From positions 68,169,350 to 68,233,349 of the forward strand of contig CM054113.1 of assembly GCA_028673005.1 (NCBI GenBank): a DNA stretch of 64,000 nt. Direction: 5' to 3'. The stretch's first letter is position 1. Every line of letters begins with the position of its first letter. The position numbers and the translations under genes are program-made. Positions 57,801 through 60,800 of the stretch are shown in pieces. Source of the stretch: Tanypteryx hageni (Eukaryota; Arthropoda; Insecta; Odonata; Petaluridae). Below the pieces are notes generated by a model that saw only the letters and a list, made by a program, of their open reading frames with translations, was not told where the DNA came from and ran no database searches.

Positions 57801-60800
57801 AGCCAGGTCTATCAGCACATGTGCCAGAGGAAGGGAAATCCCCTAGCAAAGTCTCCTTGTGCATGTCAGGGAAAGGAAAATCGCCCACTTACGGTAAGTT
57901 TAAATGAAAAAGAAACTTGTAAATTTCCACTAACAATTTTAATATACGACCGGTTTCGCCTGTTACAGCATCATCAGGTGACGAAAGCTTGGCCGAGAGT
58001 TTTATAAATATGGAGAAGGAAGGAGGAGGTAGGGTAGGAGGGTTAAATAAATAATAATAAGCAAGAGGGAGAACATACAATCAGTAATGAGATAATTTGA
58101 AAAATTAAAAAATAAATATTACAAAGTGAATGACGTAATTTTAATGCCATTTTTGTAACTTCTGTTAATTGCTTCCATTTTCTAATTACTAACTTTGCTT
58201 GCATTACTGTTATACATAACCATTTGAATTTGTCATTCGCTTTGTAATTTCTATTTTTTAATTTTTCAAATTATCTCATTACTGATTGTATGTTCTCCCT
58301 CCTGTCTATTAGCATTCATTTAACCATCCTACCCTACCTCCTCCTTCCTTCTCTGTATATATATATAACTCTCTGCCAAACTTTCGTCACCTGATGATGC
58401 TGTAACAGACGAAACCGGTCGTATACTAAAATTGTGAGTGGAAATTTGCGTTTCTTTTTCATTTAAATGGAATCTTTTCACAAAGTGGAGCCTTCCCAAG
58501 TAGACTTTGTTACGGTAAGTTTGTTAACCAGTGGACACCCTCTTAGTTAATTACCATATTTCCTTGATGCACATTTTCACTTTTTAATGTCTCTGAAATC
58601 GAGGAGTGACTTACATTTGATGGTGTCTGTAGTATTATTTTTTTCAAGGAGATAATACTAAATTAAAGGTGCGCCTTACAATCGATGGCGTATTAGAATC
58701 AAGGAAATACGGTAATTCTGGAGTGATCGTTTTATAAGTGCTGTTTATTAAAGTTGTTCATTAATGGTGCCAATGTACATAATGGCTCCTAAATAACTTT
58801 TCAGTAGAATTTAAACTGAAAGCAGTAAATTACCAGGAGGGAAACAGTGGAGAAGCCACAGCTTGTAAATTTGAAGTTGATCCCAAACATATTCGTGAAT
58901 GGCACAGGATGAAAGAAAAGTTGGATAAACTTGATCAAAGTAAGAAAAGAAAACATTTGGAGGGCACAGGCCAAAAGACAGTAAGTTAAGAAAGGGAAGA
59001 ACAGCTGATGGATTGGATATCAAGTCATAGAGAATGTCAGCTTCATGTGTCAAGAAATATTGGCCTGAGGATGCTCCGATTGTAGCAAAACACGTCATGC
59101 TATATTAAAATTGAGGAAGACACAGTTCATTTTCATTTCTATAAAGAAACAAGAACATTGCAAGTACTGGATGACTACGTACTTTTTTAGAAGGAAGAAT
59201 TATCACTGACAAAGAAAACTACCAAGGCACAAAAAGCACCAGAACAATCGATTGACAAACTAGTGTTCTTTATTACATACATCAATTATTATCTTTTAAA
59301 GGATATGTGTACATTTAAAAGTAAGGTGAGTTAATAGACCTTTTCTGTTTGTCTAGAGGTCACTCATGTCTTGGAATCAGCTCCTGGATGCTCCAGTCAC
59401 CCAGTAGATTGTTGTAACATAACTGTGGTTTGAATATATTGGAGTGTATCTAGAAGGATGACCAAAGGGGAATTGTTTCTTTCTTGAAGAGCCTGTGTAG
59501 GGAAGGGGGATGAGCTACGCAGCAAATGAGTCCTCTCTCTCCCTTCTGCATTTTGATTCTCTTACATACTCATAACATAAACACCAAATATTTAGATTTC
59601 TTTCGGAGTTTTTGCAAGTGAGGCACTTCCATAGGAGGATCCTTCCTTGATTTTTCAGGCTGAGTCACTCTATACACGACTTCAAAATCAGAATTGAAGT
59701 TTTTATTGCTTGTGAGATAAAACATGGTTCTACAAATGCATTTTCTCACAAAATTAGTAATGCCTTTATTCATGAATAATCACTACATACTAATGGGATC
59801 ATTCAAATATGATGTCTGCTGTTTGGGAGGGCAGATTGACACTGTTAAGCTGCTTGAGGGTGAGATAAAGAGAAATGGGTGATGCATGCGGATTTTTGTG
59901 GATAAGAAGATGGCAGTGGGATGTAAAATAATATTGAAAAATTGCGAGTGTCATATTTGAATAAAACCTAGGTTTGAGTTTAGAATTTTTACATTCCGGA
60001 ACTCAAGAATGAAACAGAGCCCACATGTACTCCAATACATTGGACAAGCTTTCCGTTCAGGGAGGCAATAAAAAGGAATGGTCAGGTGGGTTTATTGCAG
60101 GTTATTCCCGAAAACACTCTCCTTCCCAAAGATGAGAAATTCCTGTACTCCTTGATCATATGGTCAGAGAAAGTAGCTGTATATATTTCCGAGTAGTACG
60201 TATTCTTGCGCTAGTGGTCTTTTGGGACTTGGTGGGCAATTCCAAGTCCACAGAAAGTTCAGTTTCCTACTTCAACTAGTATGGGATGTACACCGATGTC
60301 ACATAAGCCATGCATCAAATATGGAAATCAAAAGTGGTTATAACACTGACATAGATGTGTACCAGGAGGATGCATGCAACATATTAAAGCTCTTGCAGTT
60401 GCTTGGAATAAGCCTTACAAAGACAACCTAAGAGTTATGTATGAATTTCAGATGGCAGATGAAGGCAATACTGTATACACAAAGGGTGGAAATTTGAAGT
60501 TGCCATGACACGAGCTGATAGTCTTATGGGTAAATAAGGCATGGGAAGAAGTCAATATTGGCATTATAAAATGTTACTTCAAATCCTGTGCCCTAATTAC
60601 CAAACCTAAGATGACATAATACAAAGATGTGCAAATGGAAGAGTTGTACTGCAGGATGCTAGGGAGAATATGGTAAGAATAGCAGCTCCATCAGCAAAAG
60701 AGTAAGAAGACGTGGATCAGCTAGAGTTAAATGAACATCTTGTAAGTGCAAATGATGAAGATACTAGAGACTGTTCAATTGATAATCCTGATGGTACCAG

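What the first reader, a model, noticed from the sequence alone, without database searches (positions are those of the whole stretch)
57902..58509. Inverted PLE arms, each with a complete hammerhead core
Two arms of about 240 bp face each other and each keeps CTGATGA, a small stem II, GAAA, palindromic CCGG and a TC cleavage dinucleotide. The arms have diverged, but the core bases match. The pair is bracketed by an exact 13-bp target duplication, so the inverted pair is the insertion unit itself and not a later rearrangement. With no endonuclease or RT between the arms, it looks like a minimal, non-autonomous ribozyme-bearing retroelement. Seen directly: arms, cores, duplication. Known: PLEs carry small hammerheads that work as dimers. 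Inferred: mobilisation in trans.
Basis: partly seen in the sequence, partly recalled or inferred. Interest (0 to 1): 0.78.

Follow-up and report, generated by a model that had tools for sequence, protein, structure and literature searches.

The report
Truncated Penelope insertion with inverted ends
This is a shortened, non-coding insertion of a Penelope-type retroelement whose two ends face opposite ways, a known layout for this class of mobile DNA; its relatives in the same genome hint at how that layout arises, and it is not a new kind of element.

Summary
In detail: two inverted arms, each with a CTGATGA...GAAA...CCGG-TC core, inside an exact 13-bp duplication. The arms are the 3' terminal repeat (pLTR) of an endonuclease-containing Penelope-like element (PLE): in the same genome it lies downstream of reverse-transcriptase and GIY-YIG pieces. 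A 242-bp inverted arm abuts a 375-bp direct arm whose last 42 bp are the PLE "tail". Inverted pLTRs with one tail and a duplication are the published "typical Penelope structure" (PMC3846280). A second PLE in this window has the same layout (10498-11263).

It is not a propagating unit: 15 inverted pairs have 15 different inner junctions. L011 and L025 carry broken hammerhead cores in both arms, so an intact ribozyme seems unnecessary for insertion. Rfam finds no hammerhead and the core folds weakly.

Duplications of 12-15 bp occur in 11 of 15 inverted pairs and 0 of 17 bounded direct-only copies; 13 of 15 pairs have one tailed and one short end. The sample favours tails and pairs. I infer reverse transcription primed from both sides of one staggered cut.

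The parts
57889..57901 (.). left copy of 13-bp target-site duplication TTACGGTAAGTTT
   Evidence: exact direct repeat D3; boundary control
57899..58140 (-). inverted pLTR arm, reference coordinates r-283..-42 (short end, no tail); first 3 bases shared with the duplication
   Evidence: BLAST to L015 reference; alignment
57946..57977 (-). hammerhead-type core CTGATGATGCTGTAACAGGCGAAACCGGTCGT
   Evidence: pattern matches; no Rfam hammerhead hit
58135..58467 (+). direct pLTR arm, 5'-truncated, r-374..-42; overlaps the minus arm by 6 bp at the inner junction
   Evidence: BLAST to L015 reference
58391..58422 (+). hammerhead-type core CTGATGATGCTGTAACAGACGAAACCGGTCGT
   Evidence: pattern matches; no Rfam hammerhead hit
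58468..58509 (+). PLE 'tail', 42 bp, right end only; an ATG at 58467-58469 opens a frame into it (seen by eye, coding not tested)
   Evidence: absent from the minus arm; the main arm reaches at least q320 of 325 in 30 of the 38 fetched loci
58510..58522 (.). right copy of 13-bp target-site duplication
10498..10510 (.). element B (another PLE family, same layout): left 13-bp duplication ATCTCTTTTTCTA
10508..10749 (-). element B inverted pLTR arm with hammerhead-type core CTGACGATGCCCACCTTGTGGGCGAAATGCATT
10750..10978 (+). element B: piece of PLE GIY-YIG endonuclease region between the arms
   Evidence: ORF 10658-11218 matches endonuclease pieces in 5 family A loci by tblastn, 34-41% identity, E 1.9e-4 to 2.4e-6; no Pfam hit of its own
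10979..11218 (+). element B direct pLTR arm, 97.9% identical to the inverted one; core reads CTGACAA (position G8 changed)
11219..11250 (+). element B tail, 32 bp, right end only
11251..11263 (.). element B: right 13-bp duplication

Best explanation
A single, old, 5'-truncated insertion of an endonuclease-containing Penelope-like element, reduced to its 3' terminal repeat (pLTR) present twice in opposite orientation. Shown: PLE membership of the family, layout, 13-bp duplication, the tail on one end only, and a different inner junction in each of the 15 pairs examined. Inferred: the PLE endonuclease made a staggered cut of about 13 nt; each of the two DNA ends primed reverse transcription on PLE RNA at one of two fixed start sites about 42 nt apart (r0 gives the tailed end, r-42 the short end); both cDNAs stopped early and were joined in the middle by end joining. 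That gives two outward-facing 3' ends, a duplication, and no coding sequence. The hammerhead motif came along as part of the pLTR and was probably not needed for the insertion itself.
For: PLE: RT (PF00078, E 2.8e-8, L032 piece) and GIY-YIG (PF01541, E 7.3e-5, L041 piece; E 0.001, L036 piece, below its cutoff) lie upstream of the same pLTR in the same genome. Layout: one arm ends at r-42 and the other at r0, flanked by the duplication. Of 39 places, 15 have an inverted arm whose outer end lies at one of the two sites. Of these, 13 of 15 have one tailed and one short end, and 15 of 15 inner junctions differ. Duplications of 12-15 bp with at most one mismatch occur in 11 of 15 (nine exact; L034 and L040 with one mismatch) against 0 of 17 direct-only copies with a bounded 5' end, Fisher p 1e-5; 1.3e-4 if L022's 10-bp match is counted (six junctions re-read). 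Element B in the window repeats the layout with another family. Published: PAc cleaves and extends both strands, RT starts at two adjacent internal sites, and the tail is the stretch between them (PMC11167929, main-text section read).
Against: Four of the 15 pairs lack a recognisable duplication (L010, L016, L019, L042). The 39 places are the best matches to a query that is itself a tailed inverted pair, so tails and pairs are over-represented, and the one-tail-one-short excess could partly reflect that. Among five further places with an inverted piece, none of the outer ends lies at r0 or r-42, and I left them out of the 15. Arms of a pair often agree at subfamily markers, which is also expected from self-priming. 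No biochemistry was done.
Confidence: 0.8

Rival explanations
1. Self-priming (snap-back): one PLE cDNA, or an antisense template, folds back and copies itself, giving head-to-head inverted pLTRs. This is the explanation preferred in PMC3846280.
For: Published discussion (Discussion section read in full). Arms of a pair often carry the same subfamily markers, and the arms of L011 and L025 share 13 and 19 rare variants.
Against: A snap-back copy should end where its template ends (my reasoning), but in 13 of 15 pairs one arm stops near r-42 while the other runs to about r0. It does not by itself predict a target duplication of about 13 bp at both outer ends (11 of 15). Inner ends differ by a median of 321 bp.
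Confidence: 0.17
2. One reading: a minimal non-autonomous ribozyme-bearing element that multiplies as an inverted pair and is mobilised in trans.
For: Compact layout with no RT or EN between the arms; two more compact pairs among the 39 places, L009 and L010.
Against: WIN, L009 and L010 have different inner junctions (r-283/-374, -355/-306, -309/-352); all 15 pairs differ. Copies with and without coding pieces form one truncation series. Only 40 of 2069 first-look candidates were scored, so unseen copies could still share the window's junction.
Confidence: 0.02
3. DNA transposon or MITE with long terminal inverted repeats.
For: Long inverted arms and a short flanking duplication.
Against: The 42-bp tail lies outside the inverted repeat but inside the duplication, at one end only. 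The same sequence forms the 3' end of copies with RT or EN pieces and variable 5' truncation.
Confidence: 0.005
4. Later inversion or recombination between two separate PLE copies.
For: L016 has two tails, no duplication and arms that differ at markers, so single cases may arise this way.
Against: The window pair has an exact duplication around the whole unit; such duplications occur in 11 of 15 pairs.
Confidence: 0.005

Closest known systems
Penelope elements of Adineta vaga (Pen2a_Av and others), PMC3846280 (passages; Discussion)
   Different: Duplication is 13 bp here; the window copy has no ORF left. The word hammerhead does not occur in that paper's main text.
PAc, Poseidon-type PLE of Anolis carolinensis, PMC11167929 (main-text section)
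   Same: RT start at two adjacent internal sites explains a 30-40 bp tail; hammerhead across the pLTR/ORF border; AT-rich cleavage
   Different: In vitro work; inverted genomic pairs are not analysed in the section read.
Animal retrozymes with type I hammerheads, PMC7229834 (passages)
   Same: Short, non-coding, hammerhead-bearing, AT-rich repeats
   Different: Retrozymes are direct tandem repeats of about 170-400 bp with canonical hammerheads; here there is an inverted pair with a minimal PLE-type motif.

Membership tests
Penelope-like element (endonuclease-containing) | RT and C-terminal GIY-YIG endonuclease in the family's coding copies | tested here: met
   PF00078 in an L032 piece and PF01541 in L041 and L036 pieces, upstream of the same pLTR; the L036 match is below its curated cutoff; the window copy itself has none
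Penelope-like element (endonuclease-containing) | pLTR with optional 30-40 bp tail | tested here: met
   42-bp tail on the right arm only; 32 bp in element B
Penelope-like element (endonuclease-containing) | variable 5' truncation, target duplication upon insertion | tested here: met
   truncation; duplication in the window copy and 10 other pairs, absent from direct-only copies
Penelope-like element (endonuclease-containing) | telomerase-like RT phylogeny | not tested
   no tree was built from the broken RT pieces
Hammerhead ribozyme (PLE-type minimal type I) | core CUGANGA ... GAAA ... UH | tested here: met
   both window arms; element B left arm yes, right arm has G8 changed; the core positions are recalled knowledge
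Hammerhead ribozyme (PLE-type minimal type I) | covariance-model match | tested here: not met
   no family at gathering threshold over the window, and no hammerhead family at E<=10 around either element; whether Rfam's models cover PLE-type minimal hammerheads was not tested
Hammerhead ribozyme (PLE-type minimal type I) | stems I-III can form | tested here: inconclusive
   element B left arm: stem I 4 bp and stem II 6 bp, -13.4 kcal/mol with the core held open against -15.6 free; family A arms only -2.5 and -4.0 against free folds of -9.8 and -7.8; stem III would need a dimer (CCGG, TGCA palindromes)
Hammerhead ribozyme (PLE-type minimal type I) | self-cleavage | not testable with these tools
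   needs an in vitro assay, with and without PLE protein
Animal retrozyme | direct tandem repeat with canonical type I hammerhead | tested here: not met
   arms are inverted and the motif is minimal
DNA transposon / MITE | inverted repeats reach both ends of the element | tested here: not met
   42-bp tail outside the inverted repeat at one end

The most novel reading that the evidence does not exclude
Inverted PLE pairs are made by two-sided target-primed reverse transcription: both strands of one 13-nt staggered cut each prime a PLE RNA, one at each of the two start sites, and the two cDNAs are joined head to head. Target duplications then mark two-sided events, and direct-only copies are one-sided events repaired without a duplication.
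Probability: 0.5. Interest if true: 0.55.

Novelty: new member of a known kind. Interest (0 to 1): 0.32.

Why it matters
The window element is an ordinary PLE remnant. What its relatives show may matter more: inverted pLTRs of Penelope elements, long noted in print, here mostly have outer ends at two fixed sites, variable inner ends and a duplication close to 13 bp, while the direct-only copies examined lack the duplication. That makes a concrete mechanism for PLE integration testable in any PLE-rich genome. Two pairs with a broken hammerhead core in both arms suggest that the ribozyme is not needed for this kind of insertion, which fits the in vitro result for PAc (PMC11167929).

Tried and rejected
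Rfam scan of the whole window and of both elements: no hammerhead family. Exact core in viral contigs: none. Protein search with the L036 endonuclease piece: 26 candidates, none at E<=0.001. Self-priming, MITE, retrozyme, later rearrangement and a propagating minimal unit were considered and set aside as given under the rivals. Using arm divergence to show two different template RNAs was tried and is inconclusive: the window arms share 0 rare variants (7 in one, 17 in the other) but agree at the three common markers carried by the minus arm; L009, L035 and L037 agree on a subfamily deletion; L016's arms differ at three common markers. In one search the 'others' column for the window row is wrong, because the script did not exclude the window's own arms; one search replaces it. 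L020's 16-bp repeat does not lie at an arm end and was not counted. L015, L020, L030, L038 and L043 have inverted pieces whose outer ends are not at r0 or r-42 and were left out of the 15. L024 and L032 were left out of the direct-only set because their 5' ends run to the end of the reference. Genome copies of element B were asked for eight times and never returned.

Full report
What is there. Between two exact copies of TTACGGTAAGTTT (57889-57901 and 58510-58522) lies an inverted pair of arms. The left arm, read on the minus strand, and the right arm, read on the plus strand, are the same sequence, 91.9% identical over 234 aligned columns by substitutions. Both carry CTGATGA, a small stem II, GAAA, CCGG and TC. 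The right arm continues 42 bp beyond the point where the left arm stops, and this extension lies inside the duplication.

What it is. The window's own genome is held (1.68 Gb, 1022 contigs) and contains many relatives. One search with the element returned 102 matches; only 40 of 2069 first-look candidates were scored. I merged these by eye into 39 places including the window and fetched the 38 others with flanks. With L015 as reference (r0 is the end of the tail, r-42 the short end), the other 37 loci and the window align to the 3' part of one element with variable 5' truncation. Within about 1.7 kb upstream of the end of the same pLTR lie pieces of a reverse transcriptase and a GIY-YIG endonuclease: PF00078 at E 2.8e-8 for an L032 piece, PF01541 at E 7.3e-5 for an L041 piece, and E 0.001, below the curated cutoff, for an L036 piece. 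The arms therefore belong to an endonuclease-containing Penelope-like element.

Anatomy of the window copy. The left arm covers r-283..-42 (57899-58140) and the right arm r-374..0 (58135-58509). They overlap by 6 bp at the inner junction, and no foreign sequence lies between them. The 97-nt "spacer" of the repeat finder is simply the part of the right arm that the shorter left arm lacks.

A second example in the same window. At 10498-11263 another PLE family shows the same design: 13-bp duplication ATCTCTTTTTCTA, inverted arm 10508-10749, a piece of endonuclease region, direct arm 10979-11218 (97.9% identical to the inverted one), a 32-bp tail on the right only, and the second duplication. The ORF there has no Pfam hit of its own but matches endonuclease pieces in five family A loci by tblastn, E 1.9e-4 to 2.4e-6.

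Is the inverted pair a propagating unit? The evidence says no. In 15 of the 39 places an inverted arm ends on the outside at one of the two sites, r0 (to r-2) or r-36 to r-49: the window, L009, L010, L011, L016, L017, L019, L025, L034, L035, L036, L037, L040, L042 and L046. All 15 have different inner junctions, and the inner ends of the two arms differ by 19 to at least 1683 bp, median 321 (coordinates entered by hand; L036's direct arm reaches almost to the end of the reference, so its true inner end is not known). The two other compact pairs, L009 and L010, differ from the window and from each other. Five further places have inverted pieces with other outer ends (L015, L020, L030, L038, L043), and 19 have none within the element (L032 has one 3 kb away). 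A scan for a short hidden inverted arm at the left end of those 19 gave two scores just above the highest of 40 shuffles (L012, L039), both more than 100 bp outside the element, and none at the element's edge.

Duplications. Near-exact duplications of 12-15 bp at the outer ends occur in 11 of the 15 pairs: exact in the window, L009, L011, L017, L025, L035, L036, L037 and L046, and with one mismatch in L034 and L040. L010, L016, L019 and L042 have none that I recognise. Of the 19 direct-only copies, 17 have a bounded 5' end, and none has one; L022 has a 10-bp match. Fisher p is 1e-5, or 1.3e-4 with L022 counted. In controls, right flanks of other loci matched a left region exactly by 12 or more bases in 11 of 1482 trials; near-boundary controls reached L034's score of 8 in 2.5% of 2160 trials, so L034 is the weakest of the 11. 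The length is 13 bp in 6 of the 9 exact cases and 12 in the other three; element B has 13.

Ends. In 13 of the 15 pairs one arm is tailed and the other short; L016 has two tails and L042 two short ends. Under independence this mix cannot exceed one half (two-sided binomial p 0.007), but the sample was drawn with a tailed query, which favours copies with at least one tail, so the figure is indicative only. At 15 of 24 tailed right ends the next three bases are TTA, against 2.6% at random positions. Whether this is target preference or part of the element is not settled, although in the window and L011 TTA is present in both copies of the duplication.

Mechanism. PMC11167929 (main-text section) reports that a PLE protein cleaves and extends both target strands, that reverse transcription starts at two adjacent internal sites, and that the genomic tail is the stretch between them. 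PMC3846280 (passages; Discussion) describes an inverted pLTR, a 31-bp tail on one of the inverted pLTRs and a 9-bp duplication as the typical Penelope structure, with 8-10 bp in its examples, and prefers self-priming as the cause; it also mentions an inverted-pLTR copy without a duplication. The pattern here (outer ends at two sites, free inner ends, and duplications confined to places with inverted arms among those I could bound) is better explained if both ends of one staggered cut prime reverse transcription separately and the two cDNAs are then joined. This is an inference. Shared subfamily markers between arms of a pair fit either view. No title or abstract start in the listings of searches proposes this for PLEs; I read only parts of three papers (PMC11167929, PMC3846280, and passages of PMC7229834), and the library lacks most subscription journals.

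The ribozyme. Both window arms keep the core letters, and 99 exact copies of the 31-base motif exist in the genome against none for the backwards control. However, no Rfam hammerhead model matches, and with the core held open the family A arms reach only -2.5 and -4.0 kcal/mol against free folds of -9.8 and -7.8. Element B's left arm folds well (stem I 4 bp, stem II 6 bp, -13.4 against -15.6), while its right arm has lost G8. Of 50 arms of family A, 20 keep the core in the strict form tested, 10 have CAAAA in place of CGAAA, and 20 differ otherwise, some only next to the core and one (L037m) because the arm as cut does not cover it. L011, the least diverged of the 11 arm pairs measured (1.0%), has CAAAA in both arms. 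L025 has a rewritten stretch after the core in both arms together with 19 shared rare variants. Their source RNAs therefore probably lacked a working hammerhead, yet they inserted with a 13-bp duplication; a repeated CpG change in both L011 arms is a less likely alternative. That agrees with the published finding that hammerhead mutants of PAc insert normally in vitro.

Verdict. The comparative pattern among its relatives is the part worth following.

Noticed in passing
window 10498-11263: A second, younger PLE of another family with the same inverted layout, 13-bp duplication and one-sided 32-bp tail; its left hammerhead motif folds better than that of the finding.
   Followed up: partly
window 43367-44119, minus strand: GIY-YIG endonuclease piece of a third PLE family (PF01541, E 1.6e-4, just under the cutoff); the motif scan found no hammerhead-type motif near it.
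   Followed up: partly
L025 and L011: Inverted pairs with a 13-bp duplication and a broken hammerhead core in both arms: a natural test that the ribozyme is not needed for insertion.
   Followed up: partly
family A loci: 15 of 24 tailed ends are followed by TTA against 2.6% background: target preference or part of the element.
   Followed up: partly
family A loci, pLTR: Two subfamilies marked by an 11-nt deletion in the pyrimidine-rich stretch of the pLTR; of the five pairs printed, both arms have it in L009, L035 and L037 (one edge base aside) and neither in the window and L016.
   Followed up: partly
window 9148-10409 and 40366-41647: Two LINE-type copies 96.5% identical; ORF 39204-41429 is open over 741 codons with an RVT_1 domain.
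   Followed up: no
window 2653-3150 and 55762-56154, minus strand: Pieces of DDE_Tnp_1_7 transposases.
   Followed up: no
L020: A direct repeat of at least 16 bp lies beside the right end and about 0.78 kb to the left of it, not at an arm end; unexplained.
   Followed up: no
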